A stretch of 48,727 nt of DNA. Origin: an uncultured Lachnospiraceae bacterium. Lineage in GTDB: Bacteria > Bacillota > Clostridia > Lachnospirales > Lachnospiraceae. A program made the translations under genes and the position numbers. This document shows positions 19,124-34,994 of the stretch, one piece after another. The stretch spans positions 1-48,727 of the forward strand of contig CAMUZQ010000010.1 in assembly GCA_947165275.1 (NCBI GenBank). The letters are read 5' to 3'. Numbering within the stretch: position 1 is the stretch's first letter; every line of letters starts with the position of its first letter. The notes beneath the pieces are model-generated. The model made no database searches, was not told the DNA's origin, and saw only the letters and a list, made by a program, of their open reading frames with translations.

Positions 19124-20155
19124 CTACGGTCCCGCCTGATCTCTGTCAGGCCTGAATAATACAAAATATGTTTCCTCTTTGCCGTCACCGGACTTCAATA
19201 CCCCTGATGCAAAAAGCTTTCCCTCTGAGGTAAAGACATTTCTGATATCTATCGTCCTTTTGCCTCCGTCTGAGGAAGCGCTGCTTCCGGATGACCCGCT
19301 CAATTCCGCGCTCAGTCTGTCATTCTTTGTGCTGAGACTGCCGCTGTAGGAACCTGTCGGGTCAGTATTGCCCTCCCCGCTTTCTAAAAACTGTCCAGGG
19401 TCGCTTATTTCCAGCTTAAGATCATTTCCCTCCCGGGAGACCTCCCCCATATAATATGCCGGAAGATCATCTGATGTGCTGTCATACAGGACGACCTTCC
19501 ACCGCCCGTCAAGCATTGATACATCTGTTACAGCCTCTCCTCCGTCAGGGATCCCGTTTTCCCCGCAGATTGATGAAATTGCGGACTCCGCGTCATCTCC
19601 GGGCCAGTCTTCCTCCATCTCTCTTCCCGGTCTCCCGCCGAACTCATCGCGCATTCCGCCGGAGCCTCCGGGACCTTCACCTCGTCCGGTGATCCCATCC
19701 ATCGATCCATCCTGTCCTATGGGAGGCATGCCGCTGTCCCCGTTTCCGAAGGATGGCGCCTCCTTCTGATCACGGCCGGATACGTCCTCATCGCTTATCT
19801 CTTCAGGTTTCTCTCCGGGTTTCCCTTCAGGCTTTCCTTCCACAGCTCCTTCAGGCTTCCCCTCACCCCGGGGAGGGATCTTTCCCATGGCTTCAGTATC
19901 ATAAGAAGCCTCATTCCCGCTGCTTTCCGGGACTTTGGACATGTTATGGAACATTAAAAAGCAACCCCCTATGGCCGCCAGCGCACATAAAAGAAGCACA
20001 AGCAGCACTATGATAAGGATATTCTTCCACCTGCCGCCGTTCCCTTTCCCGTGCATTGCTCCGGGTGCCGTTCCGTCAATCCTCTCGCCGCAGAAGCCGC
20101 AGTATTCTCCGCTGCTTCCCTCAGGTATTTCTTTTCCGCAATTCCTGCAATACAT
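19124..20155 (-). CDS. Zinc-ribbon membrane protein with low-complexity linker
   Basis: 343 residues. The N-terminus is a zinc ribbon with CxxC pairs at 3/6 and 19/22. A single transmembrane segment (about 43-69) follows. Then comes a linker of some 130 residues rich in Gly, Glu, Lys, Pro and Asp with near-repeats of EGKPEGK type, and a C-terminal domain (about 200-343) with beta-strand-like segments such as GRWKVVLYDSTSD and GSYSGSLSTKNDRLSAEL. The topology is probably ribbon inside and C-terminal domain outside. GAGGGGAAGG precedes the ATG. Similar architectures are common in Lachnospiraceae, but the function is not known to me. It lies between the NRPS-like cluster and deoC. Confidence 0.8.
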   Translation of the reverse strand: MYCRNCGKEIPEGSSGEYCGFCGERIDGTAPGAMHGKGNGGRWKNILIIVLLVLLLCALAAIGGCFLMFHNMSKVPESSGNEASYDTEAMGKIPPRGEGKPEGAVEGKPEGKPGEKPEEISDEDVSGRDQKEAPSFGNGDSGMPPIGQDGSMDGITGRGEGPGGSGGMRDEFGGRPGREMEEDWPGDDAESAISSICGENGIPDGGEAVTDVSMLDGRWKVVLYDSTSDDLPAYYMGEVSREGNDLKLEISDPGQFLESGEGNTDPTGSYSGSLSTKNDRLSAELSGSSGSSASSDGGKRTIDIRNVFTSEGKLFASGVLKSGDGKEETYFVLFRPDRDQAGP

Positions 20156-20178
20156 AACCTTCCCCTCTCAGGAGCTGT

Positions 20179-20925
20179 TCAACCATTAAAAAACTCAGCA
20201 GCCTCTCTCATTACCCATTCCGTATCCCCGGGATTGTCATAATAATGAGTTGCATTGCTTAAAAGATGAAGGGTGATCCCGTATCTCTCAGCATATCCGA
20301 TCGAATCCTCCGGCGGCACCAGATCGTCTCTGTCACCATGAATGATCCTTATCCTTTCCGGAAAAGCCGGCGGTTCATCATATATATCATATTGACAGAT
20401 GCTGTCATAAAATGCTCTGGTAAGTATCAGGGGCTGATCCTTCCCGAAGTCTATGGCGGCTCCATTCATGAAATCATCATATTTCTTCCTGTCCATTGCA
20501 TTCGTCATCACCTGCCCCATTTTCAGAGCAGGAGAACGCAGCATTATCTTTCCGAAAGCCTGGGGCCTGCTTTGATGATATATCATGGCGAGAAAGCCGC
20601 CGAAGCTTGTTGCAAAGCCCCAGACAGGCACTTTGTACTTTTCGGAAACATGATCATATATCTGCTCCAGATCCTTTATGCAGTTTGGCACATTCAGATC
20701 AGAAAATGCAGCATCGCTTTCCCCATGCGCGGGCCAGTCAAAGGTAAATGTCCCGATATCCGACCCCTCCATCTCCTGATGAAGCCTCTCGATCATCCGG
20801 CTCCTCTTATTACCCTTAAACCCGTGCAGGCACAGTATGACCGCCTTCTGCCCCGCAATACCTCCGTCCAGACAGGAGATATGATATCCCCTGTCCGTAT
20901 CCAGCATTATCTTTTCTCTTGTCAT
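20179..20925 (-). CDS. Alpha/beta hydrolase (esterase or thioesterase-like), last gene of the NRPS-like cluster
   Basis: 248 residues. The oxyanion-hole region is CLHGFKGNKRSR, the nucleophile elbow VWGFATSFGGFLAM (Ser between Thr and Phe), a late Asp in IIHGDRDDLVPPEDS, and the His in LLSNATHYYDNPG. These make a full catalytic triad. The HGFKG start and overall length resemble cinnamoyl-esterase/S9-like hydrolases. Placed 57 bases after an AMP-ligase gene on the same strand, it could release the product from a carrier protein, remove mischarged carriers, or hydrolyse the product. A Shine-Dalgarno-like AAAGGAAGG is unusually far (about 15 bases) from the ATG; the next ATG (20907) is possible. 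Confidence 0.85.
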   Translation of the reverse strand: MTREKIMLDTDRGYHISCLDGGIAGQKAVILCLHGFKGNKRSRMIERLHQEMEGSDIGTFTFDWPAHGESDAAFSDLNVPNCIKDLEQIYDHVSEKYKVPVWGFATSFGGFLAMIYHQSRPQAFGKIMLRSPALKMGQVMTNAMDRKKYDDFMNGAAIDFGKDQPLILTRAFYDSICQYDIYDEPPAFPERIRIIHGDRDDLVPPEDSIGYAERYGITLHLLSNATHYYDNPGDTEWVMREAAEFFNG

Positions 20926-20982
20926 TATTCTGTATATGACCTTCCTTTTTCCATATTACCGCTCATCGCGAAGACAGGAGCC

Positions 20983-22515
20983 TCATCCCACCGGTTCATC
21001 CCTGAGCACCTCTGTACGAAGTATCTTTCTCGCAGAATTCTTGATGAAGGGATTCTCCCTGATGACCAGTCTTGAAAGCTGTCTGTAGGTAGGCTGTTCC
21101 CTGTTATAATCATCCAGCACCTTCTGAAGAGCAGACTTCAATGCCTCCGCCGGCATATCCTTCGTGAGCGCCTCCTCAGGGAAGATCCTTGCTGTCAGCG
21201 CATTGTTTTCACCCGTAACCACGATCTCTGAAATAATGGGATTGAGGGCGAGCTTACCCTCTATTTCCTCAGGCGAGATGTTTTCACCGTTTGAAAGGAT
21301 GATAAGGTTTTTCACCCTTCCGTTTATGAAAAGGAAGCCGTCCTCATCCATATAGCCCTTATCACCTGTATGAAGCCATCCGTCCTTCAGGGTCTCTGCC
21401 GTCTCCTCCTCCATATGATAATATCCCCTCATGACGCTGCTGCTTTTTACAAGTATCTCGCCATTGTCGAAGGATATCTCAACCCCGGGAAGAGGCTTTC
21501 CTATGGAGCCCTTCTTGAAATCATGCACTCTGTTGGAACTTATTACAGGGGAGCATTCTGACATCCCGTATCCCTCAAGGACCTGAACTCCGTACTTTTC
21601 GAATTCATCTATATAGAATTCCTCGAGATGCGCTCCGCCGGTGAATACGGTTTTCAGCTTTCCGCCGAATACCTTCTCAGCTATCACCTCAGGCGGTGTA
21701 TCCGCACCCGCAGCCTTGATCCTTTTATAAATGGTTTCTATCATAAGCGGTACCATGAGCATGACATCCGGCTTGAAAACACTCATATTCCTGACCATAT
21801 GGAGCAGCGAATCATTGATGCAGACCACGGCCCCCATCATAAATCCCTGCAGCCAGTCCATTACAAGACAGAAGGCATGATGCACGGGGAGCACACTCAG
21901 AAAGACTATGCCCGGATCTACCTTATAAAGGATCGCCTCCACATTGGTATACAGATTCTTCTGTGTGAGCATGACGCCCTTGCTCTTCCCGGTTGTCCCT
22001 GAGGTAAATACGATCATCGAAAGATCCTCCTCTTCTGGGACGGGCGCTTCCTCCGTATCCTTTCCGGATTCTTCAAGAGACTCAAGTGTTTCCGTCCCCT
22101 CCACCTCATCGCCGGAAAGCATCCATATCTTCTTCACTCCCGGACATTTTTCCCGGACAGGCGCCGCAAGAGCGGCAAATTTGGGATCCAAAAACACACC
22201 CTCAGCCTCCGAACGGATGATAAGCTGTATCAGATCGGCTGGAGGAAGGGCCGCATCCAGCGGAACTGCCGTATTCTTACCGGTGATGATACCCATATAT
22301 GCACAGACCCATTCAGGAGAGCTGGTGCCAAGAAGCGCAATCTTGCTCTCCGCAAATCCCTGCGCAAAAAGGCCCCTTCTTACTCCTGAAACCTTCTCTC
22401 CAAACTGCTGATAGCTGTATTCGCATATTTCCTTGCCCGCAAGCCAGCGTACCGCTGCCAGATCCTTAAAGTTTTCTTCGCTGGTCTTCCACAGACTGTA
22501 GATGGTTTTTGTCAT
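20983..22515 (-). CDS. AMP-forming acyl/aminoacyl ligase (ANL superfamily), stand-alone
   Basis: 510 residues. ANL core motifs are intact: VFTSGTTGKSKGVML (P-loop-like A3, about 170-183), EGYGMSECSPVISS (A5), LHTGDKGYMDEDGF (A7), INGRVKNLIILSNGENISP (A8) and a C-terminal NSARKILR carrying the likely catalytic Lys (about 497). The A8 region is that of fatty-acyl ligases of Clostridia more than that of typical NRPS adenylation domains. It is preceded by GGAGGG overlapping the carrier-protein stop codon, so it is coupled to the acyl carrier protein gene and probably loads it. It is a clear relative of the adenylation domain in the large protein at 24253-27903. The substrate (fatty or aromatic acid, or amino acid) is not determined. 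Confidence 0.9.
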   Translation of the reverse strand: MTKTIYSLWKTSEENFKDLAAVRWLAGKEICEYSYQQFGEKVSGVRRGLFAQGFAESKIALLGTSSPEWVCAYMGIITGKNTAVPLDAALPPADLIQLIIRSEAEGVFLDPKFAALAAPVREKCPGVKKIWMLSGDEVEGTETLESLEESGKDTEEAPVPEEEDLSMIVFTSGTTGKSKGVMLTQKNLYTNVEAILYKVDPGIVFLSVLPVHHAFCLVMDWLQGFMMGAVVCINDSLLHMVRNMSVFKPDVMLMVPLMIETIYKRIKAAGADTPPEVIAEKVFGGKLKTVFTGGAHLEEFYIDEFEKYGVQVLEGYGMSECSPVISSNRVHDFKKGSIGKPLPGVEISFDNGEILVKSSSVMRGYYHMEEETAETLKDGWLHTGDKGYMDEDGFLFINGRVKNLIILSNGENISPEEIEGKLALNPIISEIVVTGENNALTARIFPEEALTKDMPAEALKSALQKVLDDYNREQPTYRQLSRLVIRENPFIKNSARKILRTEVLRDEPVG

Positions 22516-22524
22516 AATGCCCTC

Positions 22525-22764
22525 CTAGTTTACATAATCCTCAAGAAAATCAATAGCATCTCCTACGGTCTGTATACCGCTCAGCTTATGCTCATCAGCT
22601 CCGAGATCAAATTCCACATCAAATTCATCCTCAAGATCCCCAAGCAATGTCATCAGATCAAACGAACTGAGTCCGAGATCATCTCTGAAGGTCATGTCAT
22701 TTGTGATCTCGTCTGCGCTCAGTGTGCAGTATCCCGCAATGATCTCCTTAAATCTTTTTTCCAT
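22525..22764 (-). CDS. Acyl/peptidyl carrier protein
   Basis: 79 residues, acidic, the normal size of a free-standing carrier protein. The phosphopantetheine site is in DDLGLSSFDLMTLL, with Ser34 in the position of the Ser of DSL motifs. Helices before and after fit the four-helix fold. The AMP-ligase gene begins nine bases after its stop, and a stand-alone condensation-domain gene lies 42 bases upstream. It is therefore a pathway-specific carrier rather than the fatty-acid AcpP. No phosphopantetheinyl transferase gene lies in the window, so activation must come from elsewhere. A 30-base leader element with a 19-base palindrome lies just upstream of its ribosome binding site. Confidence 0.92.
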   Translation of the reverse strand: MEKRFKEIIAGYCTLSADEITNDMTFRDDLGLSSFDLMTLLGDLEDEFDVEFDLGADEHKLSGIQTVGDAIDFLEDYVN

Positions 22765-22774
22765 TTTCCACTCT

Positions 22775-22804
22775 CCTCCTCTATAAAACGCAGTTTTATA
22801 TCTG
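22775..22804 (-). repeat. Leader element copy 1, with 19-base palindrome, before the carrier-protein gene
   Basis: The 30 bases match a segment at 24201-24230 at 24 of 30 positions, same strand and same place relative to the next gene's ribosome binding site. Inside copy 1, TATAAAAC (22782-22789) and GTTTTATA (22793-22800) form a perfect 8-bp inverted repeat with a GCA spacer. The match ends with the GGAGG-like stretch used as ribosome binding site. Confidence 0.5.
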
Positions 22805-22806
22805 AC

Positions 22807-24186
22807 TTATACCAGAGCCATTATTTCCCCTACTGTCCTTTGCGGATCCTCGATCCCCCTGAAAAGTATCCTCATCATGTAATAATACAGGATCTCCATG
22901 TCCTTTTCCGTAAGATGGGCATTCTGGTAATGATAGGAGAAATTCAATGCTCCGTCAGGCAGGTGGGAGACCGTCAGATACATTTTCTTTGTGGCCGCTC
23001 CGTTGGCAAACCATTTGATATGGGAAGGCAGCCCGGAGGTTGCATTCCTTGTGGGCAGAGGCGGCTGATAGGTAAGATAGCAGCTGACATATGATGTATC
23101 CTCAGGCGTACCATATCTTTTTCTGATCTCGTCTCTCACAAGCTCGGGATCATAGCTTCCGTTCATATAGATATGATTCTGTACATCCTGGATCTTCCTC
23201 ACTGCATCGATAAAAGTTGTGTCTGCCGGTATCACCGTGCGGCAGGGATAGCATAAGGTCCGGCTTCCTCCGGAAAAGATCTCATCCTGGGTAGATCTTC
23301 TGGCTATGAAATTCTCCACCGTGATATCCTCCTGCCCGTCACAGACCTTTGACAGATAGGTTCGGATCACCAAAAGCAGCAGGTTTGTCGGAGACACCTG
23401 CTTCTCTTTACAGAATTCTATCACCCTTGCGGTATTTTCCGGCTCAAGGGCATAGTCCTTAACCAGCACCTGAAGATCCTTCTTCTCTATGTCCGCCGCC
23501 TTAAGATCAGGATTTTTGTGTCTCCTTCTGGACTCCTCCAGGACCCTCATCCCCTGTATGTCGGAATACACCGGTTCCCCGTAAAGCTCCAGCTGACTGT
23601 CCCAGAATTTCTTTGCCCGTGCAAGTCTTTTCGGATTGGCTTCCCTCTTCAGATCCTGCTCCAGCACCTTTTCATAATCCGTATGCTCCTGCGGAAGCCC
23701 CGTGCCGTATTTATAATGAGCATATACCCCCATGATATCATTGACCATCACGGCTATCCCTACGGAGTCACAAAGTCTGTGATCCATATGGACAAAGAAT
23801 CCGTTATAATTATCCGGAAGATGAACTATGAAAAACTCACTCATGGGTATGTCATCCCCGTCAAAAGTTTCATATGCCCATTTCTGCATGACATCATCCG
23901 CCTCATCCATTGTCATGTCCCTCAGGTCTTTTTCAGGAAAATCCTGCTTTTTCCATTCTGAGACATACTGGCTTATCACTCCCTTCTTATCAGGCTTCGT
24001 GAACCTCAGGCGCAGACAGCTGTAGCGTCTGTATTCTTCATTGATGCTTTTCTTCATCAGATTGACATCCACATCCGCCTGAAATGCCGCAACCACACTC
24101 AGTCCCGATACCTGCTGGGTAGCATAGCTTCTGATCCACTGGTAATGCATATTCTGTGCTGCAGTAAGCGGATACCTTTTTTCCAT
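22807..24186 (-). CDS. Stand-alone NRPS condensation-domain protein
   Basis: 459 residues from the ATG at 24186, which has AAGGAG six bases upstream; a start 13 codons earlier overlaps the leader element and was not chosen. The N-terminus KRYPLTAAQNMHYQW matches the C1 motif. The HHxxxDG motif reads MDHRLCDSVG: the second, catalytic His (about 136) and the Asp (about 140) are kept, the first His is Asp and the Gly is Ser. Later segments such as VSPTNLLLLVIRTYLSKV and NFIARRS fit the C-terminal half of the fold. It would join an acyl or aminoacyl group on one carrier to a nucleophile on another. It lies between the large A-T-C protein and the carrier protein. Confidence 0.85.
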   Translation of the reverse strand: MEKRYPLTAAQNMHYQWIRSYATQQVSGLSVVAAFQADVDVNLMKKSINEEYRRYSCLRLRFTKPDKKGVISQYVSEWKKQDFPEKDLRDMTMDEADDVMQKWAYETFDGDDIPMSEFFIVHLPDNYNGFFVHMDHRLCDSVGIAVMVNDIMGVYAHYKYGTGLPQEHTDYEKVLEQDLKREANPKRLARAKKFWDSQLELYGEPVYSDIQGMRVLEESRRRHKNPDLKAADIEKKDLQVLVKDYALEPENTARVIEFCKEKQVSPTNLLLLVIRTYLSKVCDGQEDITVENFIARRSTQDEIFSGGSRTLCYPCRTVIPADTTFIDAVRKIQDVQNHIYMNGSYDPELVRDEIRKRYGTPEDTSYVSCYLTYQPPLPTRNATSGLPSHIKWFANGAATKKMYLTVSHLPDGALNFSYHYQNAHLTEKDMEILYYYMMRILFRGIEDPQRTVGEIMALV

Positions 24187-24200
24187 ATATTCTCCTTTTC

Positions 24201-24230
24201 CCTCCTCTGCATAGCGTAGTTTCATATCTG
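24201..24230 (-). repeat. Leader element copy 2, before the condensation-domain gene
   Basis: Matches the element at 22775-22804 at 24 of 30 positions, and the next two bases also agree. The five or six changes fall mainly in one arm, so the palindrome is not kept here. Sequence read on the minus strand begins CAGATATGAAACT and ends AGAGGAGG, overlapping ribosome-binding-like purines. Confidence 0.45.
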
Positions 24231-24252
24231 ACCTGTTTTGTCCACGTCCGGT

Positions 24253-27200
24253 TTATGTTTCGATTATGATATTTACGACTGCAGGGAGCATCTTATCCCC
24301 GCACTGCTCCTTCAGCCGGTTCCTGACGGAATCCACAAATGTCCCCTCTCCCGGCAGAGCATCCATTATGAGCTTCATCTCATTGCTGCTCTTGTCGTAG
24401 GTCATATAGGTTCTGACTTCACTGACCTGCTCGGAATCCGCAAGCGTGGCTTCGAGTCCTCCAAGATCATAATACTGTCTTCCGTTATGTCCGTCTGTCA
24501 TTACCACTCTCCCGCTTTTTTCCAGGAAGTCAAGCTCACCGTCAGGCATGATCCTTGCGACGAGTCCCGTATCATACAGCACTCCCTCCCTGTAGGGATT
24601 ATCGATCTCCTCCACGCTTTTCACAGGCTTTACTCCCAGATACAGCTCTCCCCATGCTCCATAGGGCTTCTTCTGATATCTGTCATCCATTATATAGACC
24701 CTGACCTTTTCATCAGACTCTGTATCCCCGATAATATCGGTTCCGGCCTCCTTATTGATATATCCGGCCTCCATGAAAACACTCTTGGGGATATACTGTG
24801 CCGGTATATGCTTCCTGAGTCTTCTTGCAGAGGGCTCTGTCTCCATAGCGAGGATAACCGCCTCATAGCAGTCTAAAAACTCCTCCAGCAGATCCTTGTC
24901 GAAGCGGTTTCTCCAGAAACGCAGCTCTGTATAATATCCGTTTTTGTCAGACATCACCTGCATATGGAAGGGCAGGGAATCAAGCTGGGGATGAAGCCTC
25001 TTTGCCGGCAGTCCGCCTATCTCGTCTATCTCGATGATATCTCCCTGATACTGGAAAAACATCTCTCCCTCTCTCGGTACGGAGATCTGACAGCGCATGG
25101 TATCCATGATCTGCTTTCCCATTCTCTTTAAGAGCGCAAGGGTTGTCTCATGAGGCAGAGCCTGCTGACGGCAAAGATATGTAAGGAAAAGCGGGCCCGC
25201 CAGTCTTCTCCAGCGTCCGTCCGTCCTTCCGCTGTGGATACTGCAGGTCATTACATCCTTTTCATCCGAGAAAAGGCCTACACAATAATTAAATGCCGTA
25301 TAGAACAGTACGTTTTCGGATACTCCCTGTTTATTGCAGAAATATTCTATTTTAAGCTTTGTAAGCCTGTTAAGCCTTCGTCTGATCACATCCTTGTCTT
25401 CGCGGTCAAGACCATCGATACCCTTTTTATTGAGCACGGATCTGCTCATCCTGTAGCCGTCCAGAAGCCCTTCATAGTAGCGGGTGTTTTTGGCTCTTAC
25501 TCCCATCTCCTCCCGTTTCTTATCATCCAGGATGTAATCATAGAAGGTATACTTCTCCTTCTCTATGGGCTGGCCTGCATAGGCCTTATTCAGATCCTCC
25601 AGCAGGATGTTCATTGTCATACCGTCGCCCATGATGTGCGCTACATCAAACAGCAGGTAATTCGCTCTTTCTGTCTGGTAAATTGAAATATGATAGAGCC
25701 TGTCATTTTCATTGTAGGCGAAGGGCACTACAAGATTCTGCTTTTTCTCCTCCCATTCGGCTTCAGTGAGCTTTATTACCGGTATATCCGGCTGATCCTC
25801 GTCATTTCTGAAAAGCGCAAGGTATTTGTTTTCGGCCGGCTTTATTATACCCTTCACTCCCGGATGGGCATTGAGCACCTCTGCTATCGCAGCCTTCAGC
25901 TTCATGATGTCCACTCCCGGATCCAGTTCAAAGGAAAAAGGAAGATTTCCCGTCGTATTCCCGCGGATGACATATCCGAAATACATCTGCATGTTCGTGA
26001 GAGGATATACAGGCCGTGGAGGATAGGCTCCCTGATTCTCCGAGGTATTATCGATGAGAGCCTCGATCTTTGCTATGGTATTATTATCTATGAGATCATT
26101 ATAGCTGATCCCCTTTTTCAGCTGCTTCTCTATCTCCTCGATAAGAAGTATGCTTCCCATGGAATCGAGACCGCAGTCATTAAGATTATCATGTATGCCT
26201 ATAAGCTCATTACCGGTGATCCTGACAAGGATATCATAGAGAGTCTGCTGCACCTTTGTCTCAGGCTTTTGAACCTGTGCCGCCTTGCCCTCCCTTGCAT
26301 TCTTTTCCTCGAAATATTTACTGCGGATAATCTTCTTTGATGCAGTCTTCTCGAAGGGGTGCTTTCTTATGATCAGAGAACCGATCCTGGAGTAGGTGGG
26401 AAGCTCTTCATTGTGCTTATCCACAAGTTCCTGCACGGAAGCCTGTATATCGGTTATTCCCATCTTCTGCGCATATTCGTAATTCGGATAGACCTCTGCC
26501 GCTATCCTGTCACCGGACTCATATGCAAGGATATCCGCTACCAGAGGATCACTGTCAAAACGATCCTCGATGGATTCCGGACTCACATTCTCGCCGTTGC
26601 TTAATATGATCAGGTTCTTTTTACGTCCTGTAAGGAATACGTAATTTTCTTCATCTATAGTTGCCAGATCGCCCGTGCATAGGAACCCGTCCTCCGTGAT
26701 GGCTTCCTTCGTCCTTTCGGGATCCTTGTAATATCCCATCATCACAGAAGGGCTCTTCACCTGAAGCTCTCCATCCACGATACGCGCCTCAACGCCGCGT
26801 ACAAGGAATCCCACGGAGCCTCTTTTTTCCGGTCTGCCGTAATGAGGCACGGATATCTTCGGGGAGCATTCGGACATTCCGTAGCCCTGTCCGATCTCGA
26901 TCTTAAAGGAGGCAAGATCATCCGCCAGCTCCTTTGAGAGGTATCCTCCGCCGCTGATCAGCTTATGAAGTCTCTTTCCCAGCACCTTCTCCCGTGCTTC
27001 GTCCGCATTAAGCCCGTCCTGCTTCATGGCCATCTGCAGATGACTGTTTACGGCCTTCAGCATCATCGGCACCATCCTTACATAGCTGGGCTGGAAAAAC
27101 TCTATGTCATGGAATAATTTCTTAAGATCATTACAGACTGCCAGCTCTGTACCGTAACGGAAAAGAGTCAGCACGTCCCCGTTCAGACAGAAGACATGAT

Positions 27201-27903
27201 TGATCGGAAGCACATTCAGCGCAACCTCGTGATACTGATCACCCAGATCATCATTGCAGAAGATATTGTCTATACAGTTTGCATGTGACAGCATGACGCC
27301 CTTTGACTCACCTGATGTGCCTGAAGTAAAGATGATAAGTGCGCAGTCTTCGGGTGACGCCGTCCGGGCAAGCTTATGATCCACCGGTGTCTCCAGTATC
27401 ACAGGAGCGCTCACCCTGCGTCTTACCCTCTGAAGGCAGATTATCCTTTTTACATTTTCACAGTTTTCTATCAGATAGGAGGCATGAGGTTCGAATTCCC
27501 AGTCGTAAAACAGTATATCTATATCGGCCTTTCTGACATTATTACGGAGATTCTCAACAGAAAGCTGGACATCCAGCGGGACAGCAACGGATCCTGACCC
27601 CGTAACCCCAAGAAGGACGGTTATATATTCATATCCTGTTCTTCCCAGTAATGCAACATGGAGCGCATGGCCGTACTCCTCTGCCAGCTCCTCAGTCCAG
27701 GCTGCCATCTTCTCTGCATCGGCACTGATCTGCGCATAACTCTTCTCATAAACGGTGTCATCCTTCTCCCATTTCAGGAAGGTTTTGTCTCCGAATGCCC
27801 TGCCTGCATTCCGGAACAGATCCATGATCGTTTTCGTATCATCTGCATGAAGCTCCGGGTTTCCGGCGTTATCATAGACGATATGGTCATTGCTGTAATC
27901 CAT
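24253..27903 (-). CDS. NRPS-like protein: adenylation, carrier, condensation, then a partial adenylation C-lobe
   Basis: 1216 residues from the ATG at 27903 (AAAGGGG six bases upstream). Domains: adenylation (about 20-530) with FTSGTSGESKGVML, GQGYGMSECSPKIS, LCTGDLATIDEEN, GRKKNLIILSNGENVSP and a Lys in TASKKIIR; carrier (about 550-620) with DCGLDSMGSILL, Ser about 581; condensation (about 630-1020) with YPLTNMQMYFGYV and AHIMGDGMTM, where the catalytic His and Asp-Gly remain and the first His is Ala. The last 150 residues read VRVYIMDDRYQ, GELYLGV, LYDTGLVARIMPDGELDFLE and YYDLGGLEATLA, which follow motifs A5/A6 to A8 of an adenylation domain, without motifs A1 to A4. There is no thioesterase or reductase domain. 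First gene of the cluster. Confidence 0.9.
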   Translation of the reverse strand: MDYSNDHIVYDNAGNPELHADDTKTIMDLFRNAGRAFGDKTFLKWEKDDTVYEKSYAQISADAEKMAAWTEELAEEYGHALHVALLGRTGYEYITVLLGVTGSGSVAVPLDVQLSVENLRNNVRKADIDILFYDWEFEPHASYLIENCENVKRIICLQRVRRRVSAPVILETPVDHKLARTASPEDCALIIFTSGTSGESKGVMLSHANCIDNIFCNDDLGDQYHEVALNVLPINHVFCLNGDVLTLFRYGTELAVCNDLKKLFHDIEFFQPSYVRMVPMMLKAVNSHLQMAMKQDGLNADEAREKVLGKRLHKLISGGGYLSKELADDLASFKIEIGQGYGMSECSPKISVPHYGRPEKRGSVGFLVRGVEARIVDGELQVKSPSVMMGYYKDPERTKEAITEDGFLCTGDLATIDEENYVFLTGRKKNLIILSNGENVSPESIEDRFDSDPLVADILAYESGDRIAAEVYPNYEYAQKMGITDIQASVQELVDKHNEELPTYSRIGSLIIRKHPFEKTASKKIIRSKYFEEKNAREGKAAQVQKPETKVQQTLYDILVRITGNELIGIHDNLNDCGLDSMGSILLIEEIEKQLKKGISYNDLIDNNTIAKIEALIDNTSENQGAYPPRPVYPLTNMQMYFGYVIRGNTTGNLPFSFELDPGVDIMKLKAAIAEVLNAHPGVKGIIKPAENKYLALFRNDEDQPDIPVIKLTEAEWEEKKQNLVVPFAYNENDRLYHISIYQTERANYLLFDVAHIMGDGMTMNILLEDLNKAYAGQPIEKEKYTFYDYILDDKKREEMGVRAKNTRYYEGLLDGYRMSRSVLNKKGIDGLDREDKDVIRRRLNRLTKLKIEYFCNKQGVSENVLFYTAFNYCVGLFSDEKDVMTCSIHSGRTDGRWRRLAGPLFLTYLCRQQALPHETTLALLKRMGKQIMDTMRCQISVPREGEMFFQYQGDIIEIDEIGGLPAKRLHPQLDSLPFHMQVMSDKNGYYTELRFWRNRFDKDLLEEFLDCYEAVILAMETEPSARRLRKHIPAQYIPKSVFMEAGYINKEAGTDIIGDTESDEKVRVYIMDDRYQKKPYGAWGELYLGVKPVKSVEEIDNPYREGVLYDTGLVARIMPDGELDFLEKSGRVVMTDGHNGRQYYDLGGLEATLADSEQVSEVRTYMTYDKSSNEMKLIMDALPGEGTFVDSVRNRLKEQCGDKMLPAVVNIIIET

Positions 27904-27958
27904 AATGTACCCCTTTCTTTGCATTACCCCAATGCATCCTGACAGTTTCCGTTAATTT

Positions 27959-27987
27959 ATCATATCATTTCCTTCCGTATACAACAA
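27959..27987 (-). promoter_or_regulatory. Candidate promoter of the NRPS-like cluster
   Basis: On the minus strand TTGTTG (27982-27987) and TATGAT (27959-27964) are 17 bases apart, giving a leader of about 50 bases. The leader contains a small inverted repeat GCATT-ggggt-AATGC (27921-27935). Confidence 0.45.
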
Positions 27988-27991
27988 TGTC

Positions 27992-28939
27992 TTACACCTG
28001 TTCAGCCTGCCTGCCGCCCTGTCTTTTTTCAAATCTGAAGGCCATCGGATATACGCCAAAGCTGACAAAGGCTACTATCGCATATCTCACACACCTCACC
28101 AGAAATGAGGCTGCAGTCGCGCTCGAGATGAATTCGGGAGAAAATGGCAGTCTGAGGATCTTATCGATCACAACAAACACCAGAAGTGCTCCCGCCAGAC
28201 GGAGGATCATGAAAAATATATTGCGGGTGTTTTCGAAGCGGACGTATCTGTCCTCAAAGAGCGCCCCCGCCATAAATCCGATAAGCAGTCCCACAGATGT
28301 AAAATAATCAGGGCTTTTGCAGTAGAAAAAGCCCGGTACAGCGGTGAGCAGAAGGATCCCGTCCATCACCATTGTATTGGGGATCTTCGCCTGCAAAAAA
28401 GAAATGATCACTACGCTTATGCCTCCGATCAGCCAGCCTGTCATGACATCAGTAGGGTAATGCGCTCCCAGCGCAAACCTTGAAACACCTATACCTATCG
28501 GCATGATGATACAGATCACTGTCATCCATCTTTTACGTACACCACGCGCCAGCGTCGCAAAAAGCGTAACTGAATTCGTGGCATGCGAGCTTGGAAAGGA
28601 AAAGCCCTGAGCCACCACATCATTTACATCGGCATTCGCCTTTACCTTTCGGAGGATTTTGATCTCCTTATGATCGAAATAAGGGCGTCGGCGGCAGAAT
28701 ATGTTTTTTATCATAGTATTCCATACAAGGCCTGCAAGAACAGCGATCCCCAGATCCCGTCCCAGCTTTTTGTTCAGGCTCCAGTACACAAACCCTATGA
28801 TGACGACCATCGGTATTTCCTCGCCGCAGATGGTAAAAAAGGAAAAAACCGCTGTAAGGCCGGCTCCCATATGTGCCTGGATCCAGGCCATCAGGCTGAC
28901 CTCCCATTGAAAGAAAAAAGTATTACCTATGTCTGACAT
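27992..28939 (-). CDS. PAP2-family membrane phosphatase
   Basis: 315 residues from the ATG at 28939, ten bases after AGGAGG; the earlier in-frame ATG lies in the terminator of the previous gene. The three PAP2 phosphatase motifs are present: KNIFCRRRPYF, then SFPSSHATNSVTL, then SRFALGAHYPTDV, with His and Arg residues of the active site. Eight or so hydrophobic segments follow or surround them, so it is an integral membrane enzyme with an extra C-terminal membrane domain. Members remove phosphate from undecaprenyl pyrophosphate, phosphatidate or similar lipids. Its stop lies only 88 bases before the large NRPS-like gene, so a link with the cluster is possible but not shown. Confidence 0.9.
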   Translation of the reverse strand: MSDIGNTFFFQWEVSLMAWIQAHMGAGLTAVFSFFTICGEEIPMVVIIGFVYWSLNKKLGRDLGIAVLAGLVWNTMIKNIFCRRRPYFDHKEIKILRKVKANADVNDVVAQGFSFPSSHATNSVTLFATLARGVRKRWMTVICIIMPIGIGVSRFALGAHYPTDVMTGWLIGGISVVIISFLQAKIPNTMVMDGILLLTAVPGFFYCKSPDYFTSVGLLIGFMAGALFEDRYVRFENTRNIFFMILRLAGALLVFVVIDKILRLPFSPEFISSATAASFLVRCVRYAIVAFVSFGVYPMAFRFEKRQGGRQAEQV

Positions 28940-28978
28940 TATCCTTAAACCTCCTGAGCCTTCCGATCCTGTATTCAT

Positions 28979-29012
28979 AAAAAAGCCTGCCGTGATCGCG
29001 GACAGGCTTTTT
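28979..29012 (-). terminator. Strong intrinsic terminator after the aquaporin gene (bidirectional)
   Basis: AAAAAGCCTG (28980-28989) pairs with CAGGCTTTTT (29003-29012), extended by CCG/CGG inside with one bulged base. The A- and T-tracts make it work in either direction. It sits 26 bases beyond the aquaporin stop codon and only about 40 bases before the PAP2 start. Confidence 0.85.
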
Positions 29013-29037
29013 CAGATCATCGTTCATACATCTCTGA

Positions 29038-29724
29038 TTATGCTTCAAGTGCCTTATATATGCCGGCTGCCAATGCCGCGCCCACAAGCGGTCCCACTAT
29101 AAATACCCAGAGACTTGCGACAGGCGCGCTGTTTCCGTTCAAAGCCGCAAATACCGCAGGAGCTATGCTCCTTGCAGGATTCACGCTTGTTCCCGTAAGC
29201 CCTATACCAAAGATATGGACAAAGGTAAGCGTAAGTCCTATCACCAGTCCTCCGAAGGAACCATGACCTGCCTTGGAGGATGTCACTCCGAGTATGGTGA
29301 GAACAAATATAAAAGTAAGCACTGTCTCGACTATAAGCCCTGCTATGGGACTTCCGTTCACTCCTGCAAGCCCGTTGGCTCCGAAGCCTCCTGTCATATC
29401 GGTGACATTTCCGGATGCAAAGATGACTGCAAGCAGCATCGTTCCGATGAATGCACCTATGATCTGTGATATTATGTAACCTATAAGATCCTTTGCATTG
29501 ATCCCGCCGTTAATAAAAACGGCAAGTGATACCGCAGGATTCACATGACATCCCGAGATATTTCCAATGCAATATGCCTCTGCCACTATGGAAAGCCCGA
29601 AAGCAAGAGCCGTAAGCAGATAGCCTGCCCCGTTCGCCGAGTCGCATCCTACAAGCATGGCTGTGCCGCATCCCATTAAGACAAGAACACAGGTTCCAAT
29701 CACTTCTGCTATATATTTTTTCAT
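29038..29724 (-). CDS. aqpZ: Aquaporin, AqpZ-like (MIP family)
   Basis: 228 residues from the ATG at 29724, preceded by AGGGGG. Both half-helix signatures are present: CHVNPAVSLAVF and GTSVNPARSIAPAVF, the second with the Arg of the selectivity filter. A His in LTFVHIFGIGLTGTSVN matches the AqpZ filter His that narrows the pore, which favours water over glycerol. Six membrane segments can be drawn. The gene has its own promoter within the end of the upstream gene and its own strong terminator, so it is probably a single-gene transcript. I give the symbol by similarity; glycerol transport is not excluded. Confidence 0.88.
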   Translation of the reverse strand: MKKYIAEVIGTCVLVLMGCGTAMLVGCDSANGAGYLLTALAFGLSIVAEAYCIGNISGCHVNPAVSLAVFINGGINAKDLIGYIISQIIGAFIGTMLLAVIFASGNVTDMTGGFGANGLAGVNGSPIAGLIVETVLTFIFVLTILGVTSSKAGHGSFGGLVIGLTLTFVHIFGIGLTGTSVNPARSIAPAVFAALNGNSAPVASLWVFIVGPLVGAALAAGIYKALEA

Positions 29725-33428: not shown

Positions 33429-34994
33429 TCATTCCCCGTCCGGATAGAAAAGCTCATTAATAAAGCGTACTCTCGTCTCCAGAGACTGCTTGAGTACAGT
33501 GCTGTCCTTTGCCATATCATAGGCATGGACCGTCCCCTTTGTCTCATTCAGGACGACCTCGCAATGATCCTTTGAAAGGCGGTCGGCGTACAGGACCCCG
33601 TCATCGTGCAGGCAGTCAAATTCAGCTGTCTCCACATAAGTCGGAGGCATCCCCTCAAGAGATTCGGCCTCTACAGGCGATCCGTTTTTGGAGGAGGACT
33701 CCATAAATCTGGAACTGCAAAGCTTATAATATTCCAGCACAGCCCTGGAATTGATCACAGGCACATCGGTATACCTCTTCATCGATCTGCTGTTAAGGCG
33801 CGAATCAAGACTCGGGTAAAGAAGGACCTGTCCCGCGGGCATGGGCATCCCCTTGCTCTTCAATACAAGACAGAGCGTAGCGCACATTGTCCCGCCTGCG
33901 CTGTCTCCCATAACAATGATCCTGGAAGGATCGATAAGCAGATCGCCGGCATTCTCCAGAAGATAACGGTATATCTTAAATGCCTCTCTGTATTGTATGG
34001 GGGGCTTGAAATCCGGAGCCAGATCATAATTTGGCAAAAAGACCCTGCTGTCCGTATGCTCCGACACATATCTTGCAAGACGGTAATGATACGGAAAAGC
34101 AGGAAAAACCAGCGCTCCACCGTGAAGCAGAAGCACAGCGGGAAGCAACTCATGTTCTTTTCCCTTAGGATCATAGACCAGACAGTCCAGCCTGTTTTTG
34201 GGAGATTCGTCACAGGGTATCCTGATCTTTTTCACTGTAAGCGCTTCATCACTTTTTTCTTTTTTCATCAGTCCGCCGTAAAGCAGCTGTATCATCCTCA
34301 CCTGTATACGGGATGTTGCTACCGGGATCTTTTTAAGCTCCTCGAGCTCCGGATCGATATCCCATTCGCCCTGATGCTCAGGGATATCCTCAACCTGCTT
34401 TGCGACTACAAGCTCCATATGATCCCTGAAGATATATATATTGATATCATCAGCAAGGTTGGCTATTATGGATCTGCCTATCTCCGCCCAGTCCCTGTCA
34501 TTTCCGGGCTCCTCCTGTCTGTCAAAAGTCGCGAAGCCGTAGTTTTGCAGAGACCAGACATATTCCTCCTCTTCAGGATCGCTTTTTCCGTCATCTATTT
34601 CACCGGCTTCAACCCTTTTGATGCCCATTTCCTCAAAAAGCTTCTCACCCTTTTCGGATTCATCATAATACCTGCTCGAGAGGATAGCCCTTATCTTTCC
34701 TGATACCTCCCTGGTCTCGACATCACCGTTCACGATCTCCTGAAGGCGCCCTCTTTTGTCGGAATCCATGCGGGTTTCCGAATGTATTCTCAACTCAAAC
34801 TGCCCGTTCTCTATCTCTGCCGACAGCTCACCCTCGAACTCATCGCTTATGTTTTTAAGCATCTCCATGGTCTCTTCGGCAAGCATGCGGATCTGAGTCT
34901 GCATCTTTTCATCAAGGCCCTTCGCGATAGCTATCCTTTCCGTTTCCTCAAGGACCTCACTGAAACCTTTTCCATGATTATCGATATTGATCAT
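33429..34994 (-). CDS. Fusion: N-terminal histidine-kinase-like ATPase-type domain plus HSL-family esterase
   Basis: 521 residues. The C-terminal half (about 255-521) is a hormone-sensitive-lipase-type alpha/beta hydrolase: LLLHGGALVFPAF (oxyanion hole), IVMGDSAGGTMCA (nucleophile Ser about 365), ETAEFDCLHDDG (Asp) and KGTVHAYDMA (His about 490). The first 200 residues do not belong to that family. They resemble short Lachnospiraceae proteins annotated as ATP-binding: QIRMLAEETMEMLK near residue 35, ENGQFELRIHSETRMD, and SIIANLADDINIYIFRDHMEL near 175. The helix with Glu pairs is placed like the N-box of RsbW-like ATPases, though no G-box was found. A soluble protein. It follows the membrane fusion gene by 30 bases. 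How the halves cooperate is unknown. Confidence 0.75.
   Translation of the reverse strand: MINIDNHGKGFSEVLEETERIAIAKGLDEKMQTQIRMLAEETMEMLKNISDEFEGELSAEIENGQFELRIHSETRMDSDKRGRLQEIVNGDVETREVSGKIRAILSSRYYDESEKGEKLFEEMGIKRVEAGEIDDGKSDPEEEEYVWSLQNYGFATFDRQEEPGNDRDWAEIGRSIIANLADDINIYIFRDHMELVVAKQVEDIPEHQGEWDIDPELEELKKIPVATSRIQVRMIQLLYGGLMKKEKSDEALTVKKIRIPCDESPKNRLDCLVYDPKGKEHELLPAVLLLHGGALVFPAFPYHYRLARYVSEHTDSRVFLPNYDLAPDFKPPIQYREAFKIYRYLLENAGDLLIDPSRIIVMGDSAGGTMCATLCLVLKSKGMPMPAGQVLLYPSLDSRLNSRSMKRYTDVPVINSRAVLEYYKLCSSRFMESSSKNGSPVEAESLEGMPPTYVETAEFDCLHDDGVLYADRLSKDHCEVVLNETKGTVHAYDMAKDSTVLKQSLETRVRFINELFYPDGE

What the first reader, a model, noticed from the sequence alone, without database searches (positions are those of the whole stretch)
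20179..27903. Compact NRPS-like cluster with two fatty-acyl-ligase-type adenylating enzymes
Five consecutive minus-strand genes encode A-T-C plus a partial A domain, a lone C domain, a carrier protein, an AMP ligase and a hydrolase. This is enough for one or two condensation steps, such as an N-acyl amino acid or a small acyl-dipeptide. Both adenylating enzymes share an almost identical A8 segment (NLIILSNGEN) of fatty-acyl-ligase type, which suggests duplication within the cluster. No thioesterase or reductase domain and no exporter is fused, so release may depend on the hydrolase at 20179-20925. I do not recognise a described product for this arrangement.
Basis: partly seen in the sequence, partly recalled or inferred. 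Interest (0 to 1): 0.78.

Follow-up and report, generated by a model that had tools for sequence, protein, structure and literature searches.

The report
Two fatty-acid-conjugating systems side by side
A gut (probably rumen) bacterium carries, in one row of genes, a known type of operon that ties fatty acids to small amines and, in front of it, an apparently undescribed one-piece enzyme that looks able to do a similar job by a separate evolutionary route.

Summary
The five genes are real and correctly placed, but they look like two systems, not one assembly line. Genes 2-4 of the row (C, T, A; 24225-20983) form a fatty-acid-amide "CTA" operon: the lone C protein is 47% identical (214 of 457) to OaaC (PDB 12KH), which makes oleoyl-aminovalerate-type amides, and has the same DHxxxDS motif. 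C-T-A order holds in all 50 of 59 named loci with both C and A. The first gene (27924-24253) is A-T-C plus a dead A-domain remnant, a family of ~1200-residue enzymes in 29 of 48 genomes of the genus (3 partial), beside CTA in only 2 of 42 named loci with at least 4 kb upstream. Its A and C domains fall in clades apart from those of CTA, so the shared NLIILSNGEN is no sign of local duplication. By analogy with OaaC, the C domains release product themselves. Lipase-like hydrolases recur beside CTA; an esterase tracks the A-T-C gene and is once fused to it. Most likely: two parallel fatty-acid conjugases. No product was measured.

The parts
26290..27924 (-). A1: fatty-acyl-type adenylation domain of the A-T-C-Ax protein (residues 1-545)
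   Evidence: Pfam AMP-binding and AMP-binding_C_3; A5 motif GYG(M/L)SE in 39 of 41 and A10 lysine in 41 of 41 rows; own clade in the A-domain tree, SH-aLRT 97
26029..26277 (-). T1: carrier domain (residues 550-632), GLDS serine
   Evidence: Pfam PP-binding; G(L/M)DS in 41 of 41 rows
24775..26028 (-). C1: condensation domain (residues 633-1050), motif AHIMGDG, related to ordinary NRPS C domains
   Evidence: Pfam Condensation; catalytic His kept in 39 of 41 rows; groups with NRPS C domains of the same genome and not with CTA C domains
24256..24774 (-). Ax: truncated A-domain tail (A6-A9 region only), expected to be catalytically dead
   Evidence: present in the 41 aligned family members, median 33% identity to the window, lowest coverage 70%; dN/dS 0.17 against L039
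22807..24225 (-). C2: free-standing condensation enzyme of the fatty-acid-amide type (OaaC-like), motif DHRLCDS
   Evidence: 47% identity (214 of 457) to PDB 12KH, E 1e-142; one clade with OaaC
22525..22764 (-). T2: free-standing acyl carrier protein, LGLSS serine
   Evidence: Pfam PP-binding; the PDB chains it matches are nearly all named acyl carrier proteins
20983..22515 (-). A2: free-standing fatty-acyl-type adenylating enzyme of the CTA operon
   Evidence: CTA clade, nearest to L039 and then to Ruminococcus sequences
20179..20925 (-). alpha/beta hydrolase (Hydrolase_4 type), last gene of the row
   Evidence: Pfam; in the genus, relatives at 57-62% only in G427 and G437, which carry CTA of this type, and one at 30% in G425; lipase-like hydrolases recur beside CTA elsewhere
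33429..34994 (-). Esterase (Abhydrolase_3) with an unnamed N-terminal domain; relatives sit beside or are fused to the A-T-C-Ax gene in other genomes. Here it lies 5.5 kb upstream; its link to the A-T-C-Ax gene in this genome is inferred

Best explanation
The row holds two fatty-acid-conjugating systems. (1) A2 activates a fatty acid as acyl-AMP and loads it on T2; C2 transfers it to a small soluble amine (of the 5-aminovalerate or GABA kind if specificity follows OaaC), giving a fatty acid amide. (2) The upstream one-piece enzyme does the matching three steps in one chain: A1 loads a fatty (or related) acid on T1 and C1 passes it to a soluble amine or alcohol. Its tail Ax cannot adenylate and is probably a scaffold left from a C-A platform. 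The hydrolase most likely supplies free fatty acid from lipids (or turns products over) and is not needed for release. The benefit is probably detoxifying or marking long-chain fatty acids in the gut. Shown here: gene content, motifs, relationships, conserved order, context. Inferred: all reactions, substrates and the benefit.
For: C2 to OaaC/12KH 47% over 457 residues, same DHxxxDS motif; OaaA + OaaACP + OaaC make acyl amides in vitro (PMC13142362, Results read). C-T-A order in 50 of the 59 named loci, that is in every one that holds both C2 and A2. Reported CTA operons: C and A with a carrier gene between, Lachnospiraceae, amides from live cells, fatty acid toxicity eased by amines (PMC13060934, passages). 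Separate A and C clades. In 48 genomes of the genus CTA and A-T-C presence are not associated (both 11, CTA only 3, A-T-C only 18, neither 16; p 0.12), whereas esterase and A-T-C are (17, 1, 12, 18; p 0.0002). A lipase-like hydrolase lies close to CTA in 35 of 58 OaaC-type loci and 18 of 20 distant loci; an SCP2 lipid-carrier gene in 16 of those 20 (families named). One phosphopantetheinyl transferase match, in a 242-residue frame, in the genome.
Against: No product, substrate or expression data. The two systems are adjacent in at least two or three species, with 27 bases between them here and all measured genes under purifying selection, so a joint product is possible. C1 lies among ordinary NRPS C domains, so its acceptor could be something else. 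In 23 of 58 OaaC-type CTA loci no hydrolase of the tested kinds was near (some are cut contigs). Two of 41 A-T-C-Ax relatives have lost A3/A5 motifs and two have lost the C1 histidine. The presence counts ignore relatedness and incomplete genomes.
Confidence: 0.62

Rival explanations
1. One joint pathway: A-T-C-Ax makes a first acyl amide and the CTA enzymes add a second acyl group (or the reverse), giving a doubly acylated amine or an acyl-amino-acyl lipid.
For: Operon-like spacing; the joined order is kept intact in L039 (the same contig as L137/G427, by length), starts the same way in L095 (L138/G407), and is probably split over two contigs in G437; close relatives of the hydrolase were found in the genus only in G427 and G437.
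Against: Each half occurs without the other in many genomes and their presence is not associated; no domain showed a docking or second-acceptor feature that I could test.
Confidence: 0.2
2. A-T-C-Ax is a broken or decaying NRPS module: A1-T1-C1 once fed a downstream amino-acid module that was cut off inside its A domain, leaving a non-functional remnant.
For: Ax is a truncated A domain; Ax changes faster than A1 and C1 (dN/dS 0.17 against 0.03 and 0.07 versus L039); 2 of 41 relatives have degenerate A3/A5 motifs and 2 of 41 lack the C1 histidine.
Against: About the same length and end are kept in 40 relatives at roughly 36-88% identity over the whole protein; the catalytic motifs are kept in 39 to 41 of 41 rows; all regions of this gene are under purifying selection.
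Confidence: 0.1
3. C1 makes an ester or thioester instead of an amide, so A-T-C-Ax is a lipid (wax- or glycerol-ester-like) synthase paired with an esterase.
For: The gene tracks an esterase in the genus (17 of 18 esterase genomes); one fusion, in L169.
Against: No alcohol-type C-domain signature was tested; esterase pairing fits fatty acid supply equally well.
Confidence: 0.15

Closest known systems
oaa / CTA fatty-acid-amide operons of gut Clostridia (OaaA-OaaACP-OaaC of Coprococcus eutactus, PDB 12KH; first described by Chang et al. 2021, not held and not read)
   Same: Free-standing C, carrier and fatty-acyl A enzyme; DHxxxDS motif; C 47% identical; order C-T-A as described for CTA
   Different: An A-T-C-Ax gene in front and a different hydrolase behind; many of the 59 named relatives come from rumen isolates or bins (record titles)
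Lipoinitiation / starter modules of lipopeptide NRPSs (acyl ligase-T-C-A-T; recalled)
   Same: Acyl-activating A1, then T1, C1 and the beginning of a C-A arrangement
   Different: The A domain after C1 is a fragment, there is no acceptor carrier domain and no further module
Free-standing C enzymes with soluble acceptors such as VibH (recalled, not tested)
   Same: C domain that would use a free amine
   Different: No sequence comparison was made; A, T and C are fused in the A-T-C-Ax enzyme

Membership tests
Fatty-acid-amide (CTA / oaa) operon, for genes 24225-20983 | Gene order C, then carrier, then A, as separate proteins | tested here: met
   definition from PMC13060934 passages
Fatty-acid-amide (CTA / oaa) operon, for genes 24225-20983 | C enzyme of the FAA clade with (D/H)HxxxDS motif | tested here: met
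   DHRLCDS; 47% to 12KH; one clade with OaaC, SH-aLRT 99
Fatty-acid-amide (CTA / oaa) operon, for genes 24225-20983 | Fatty-acyl-type A enzyme and an acyl carrier protein with its serine | tested here: met
   family matches and motifs; fatty acid specificity itself was not tested
Fatty-acid-amide (CTA / oaa) operon, for genes 24225-20983 | 70% identity over 80% of C and A to catalogued CTA proteins (cut-off used in PMC13060934) | tested here: inconclusive
   Only OaaC was available: 47%, below that cut-off; the catalogue of Chang 2021 is not held
Fatty-acid-amide (CTA / oaa) operon, for genes 24225-20983 | Produces fatty acid amides | not testable with these tools
   needs enzymes and mass spectrometry
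Fatty-acid-amide (CTA / oaa) operon, for the A-T-C-Ax gene | C domain in the FAA clade | tested here: not met
   C1 groups with ordinary NRPS C domains; motif AHIMGDG
Canonical NRPS assembly line, for all five genes | Amino-acid-activating C-A-T module and a release domain | tested here: not met
   both complete A domains match fatty-acyl-ligase models best; Ax lacks A1-A5 and A10; no TE or R domain was found

The most novel reading that the evidence does not exclude
A-T-C-Ax is an undescribed, widespread family of one-piece fatty-acid conjugases, evolved separately from the FAA operons by cutting an NRPS lipoinitiation module inside its A domain and keeping the stub as a scaffold. It works with a dedicated esterase (once fused) so that lipid breakdown and fatty acid conjugation are coupled. 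In this lineage it has been joined to an FAA operon acquired from, or shared with, Ruminococcus relatives.
Probability: 0.35. Interest if true: 0.62.

Novelty: new variant of a known kind. Interest (0 to 1): 0.46.

Why it matters
Fatty acid amides made by gut Clostridia act on host receptors and may protect the bacteria from fatty acids (PMC13142362, PMC13060934). Finding the OaaC-type operon in many rumen lineages, with lipase-like, SCP2 and TetR neighbours that are not named in the text of those two papers (word searches; 'hydrolase' and related words, no occurrence), gives testable partners for how fatty acid is supplied and sensed. If the A-T-C-Ax family makes similar products, counts of acyl-amide producers based on the C-T-A operon alone miss a second, independent kind of maker.

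Tried and rejected
Local duplication of the two A domains: rejected by the tree and 33% identity. Single assembly line: not favoured. Release by the hydrolase: not needed, by analogy with OaaC. AlphaFold model of T1-C1-Ax: useless, mean pLDDT 32 with 3 sequences, so where Ax packs is untested; no fold search was run. Ax by Pfam: no credible hit (best E 0.14 to an unrelated family); shown instead by phmmer and hhalign. The N-terminal domain of the esterase at 33429-34994 has no credible Pfam family. Search of plasmids with the cluster DNA: one weak hit. Conserved neighbours of A-T-C-Ax: none general; tatD and ksgA (named by eye) in 6 of 40 loci. The window's esterase is 69-71% identical to those beside A-T-C genes in L167 and L151, whose A-T-C is only 41-42% identical to the window's, so it need not have been inherited together with this A-T-C gene. 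Not in print: the search listings showed no paper on an A-T-C-Ax enzyme or on the hydrolase/SCP2 context of CTA; I opened only four papers (PMC13142362: abstract, Results, Discussion, passages; PMC13060934, PMC10191378 and PMC12479983: passages), and the main paper (Chang et al. 2021) is not held, so this is weak.

Full report
Observation. Searches confirm five consecutive minus-strand genes at 20179-27924: A-T-C with a partial A domain, C, carrier, AMP ligase and alpha/beta hydrolase, with gaps of 27, 42, 9 and 57 bases. A promoter and terminator scan of 19900-29100 found 20 promoter-like sites (shuffles 12.6, sd 3.9) and 9 terminator-like sites (6.2, sd 2.6) and settles nothing.

The C-T-A half. 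The lone C protein matched one PDB chain strongly, 12KH (E 1e-142), with 214 of 457 aligned residues identical. PMC13142362 (abstract, Results, Discussion and passages read) reports 12KH as OaaC of Coprococcus eutactus, a free-standing C domain that joins carrier-bound fatty acids to 5-aminovalerate or GABA; FAA C domains there have a (D/H)HxxxDS motif. The window has DHRLCDS. PMC13060934 (passages) describes the CTA operon as C and A with a carrier gene between them, found in Lachnospiraceae, with amide production in culture. Of the 59 named loci, 50 hold both C2 and A2, and all 50 have the order C-T-A (recounted; the other nine are cut or broken, and in L095 the A match is the A1 domain of the upstream gene). 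In a draw of 200 genomes of the family, 31 (own included) had a C2 relative at E 7e-49 or better. OaaC falls in one clade with the window and 17 other sequences (SH-aLRT 99), apart from more distant CTA C proteins. The window's A2 and C2 lie nearest to L039 and then to Ruminococcus sequences, which suggests transfer; this was not tested.

The A-T-C-Ax half. In 48 genomes of the genus, 29 have this protein, 26 nearly full length and 3 partial (my count from the list). In 397 genomes of the family, 14 besides the window's had a match over most of its length (few candidates per genome were scored, so a lower bound). In 391 genomes of the class the C1-Ax part gave 3 matches at E 1e-40 or better: the window's genome and two from other families, at 57 and 60%. 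I fetched 40 loci. With the window, 41 proteins align over nearly their whole length; median identity to the window is 44% (A1), 30% (T1), 47% (C1) and 33% (Ax). The T serine and A10 lysine are kept in 41 of 41 rows, the A5 motif and the C1 histidine in 39 of 41. Ax matches A domains from about A6 to A9 only.

Not a duplication. In a tree of 94 A domains, the 41 A1 rows form one group (97), 26 OaaC-type CTA A rows another (100) and 18 distant CTA A rows a third (95). For that tree I chose 25 of the named CTA loci, and 9 of 13 other AMP-binding regions of the genome passed the length filter. In a tree of 59 C domains, C1 rows join the genome's ordinary NRPS C domains and C2 rows join OaaC; there I took the window and every second of the 40 other A-T-C rows, and one ordinary C domain entered twice (L003). 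Both trees used the quick method and some long branches are flagged. NLIILSNGEN is common to both A families.

How often together. The A-T-C gene is beside CTA in L039 and L095, 2 of 59 named loci, or 2 of 42 with at least 4 kb visible upstream of C. G437 has an A1 piece at 83% on one contig end and T2, A2 and hydrolase at 84, 86 and 57% on another, probably the same cluster split. Across the 48 genomes CTA and A-T-C presence are not associated (p 0.12; 22 better genomes p 0.65). For this count G437 was taken as CTA-positive although one search did not list it, and four genomes whose C2 match was only 26-28% were taken as CTA-negative.

Hydrolases. Near the CTA genes an alpha/beta hydrolase of one of the tested kinds lies in 35 of 58 OaaC-type loci: 13 of a ~317-residue kind, mostly just downstream of A; 21 of a ~330-residue kind, mostly just upstream of C; and one, L039, of the window's kind. 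Three of 58 have one farther off only or also, and 23 have none near (L097 gave no C frame and is the 59th). In the distant clade 18 of 20 have one next to C (upstream in the loci ordered) and 16 of 20 an SCP2 lipid-carrier gene; the two without a hydrolase (L179, L180) also lack T and A. TetR-type genes lie close in 30 of 58. Pfam names single representatives of these Hydrolase_4, SCP2 and TetR. Loci are related to each other, so these counts are not independent. Beside A-T-C-Ax genes, relatives of the window's esterase (33429-34994) lie next to or fused with the gene in 10 of 40 loci, in several arrangements: downstream, upstream, divergent, and fused in L169 (1727 aa). One more locus (L163) has another Abhydrolase_3. 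All 10 fall in one 17-row part of the tree. In the genus 17 of 18 esterase genomes have A-T-C-Ax, against 12 of 30 without the esterase (Fisher p 0.0002; better genomes 8 of 8 against 6 of 14, p 0.018); relatedness is not corrected for.

Reading. Two separately evolved fatty-acid conjugation systems appear to have come to lie in one row in a few related species. The C-T-A half is a member of a known kind by order, motif and clade, though product and close-identity tests are open. The A-T-C-Ax half works like a one-piece version but fails the membership test for FAA C domains, so it is named by its make-up only. That it conjugates fatty acids at all is inferred from its domains.

Noticed in passing
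L169:7922-13105 (G417): One open frame of 1727 residues holds both the esterase and the A-T-C-Ax protein.
   Followed up: partly
L183:9578-11720 and like loci among L181-L198: Many distant CTA operons carry a shared set in front: TetR (opposite strand), an SCP2 lipid-carrier gene and an alpha/beta hydrolase.
   Followed up: partly
L248 (G397), possibly also G380, G399, G441: C2 relatives at 26-28% identity; in L248 the genes run in the order T, A, C, a possible third variant of the operon.
   Followed up: no
L179 and L180 (G046, G149): C2 relatives at 38-39% with no carrier or A gene found nearby.
   Followed up: no
A-T-C-Ax family alignment, 2 of 41 rows (probably L173 and L174; not checked row by row): Two relatives have lost the usual A3 and A5 motifs in A1, and two lack the catalytic C1 histidine.
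   Followed up: no
window 33429-34994, residues 1-270: The N-terminal domain of the esterase has no credible Pfam family and has relatives in frames of 215 and 223 residues in the same genome (L217, L218).
   Followed up: partly
G000 contigs C29, C57, C68, C84, C103, C107, C112: The same genome has several other NRPS genes with ordinary C and A domains.
   Followed up: no
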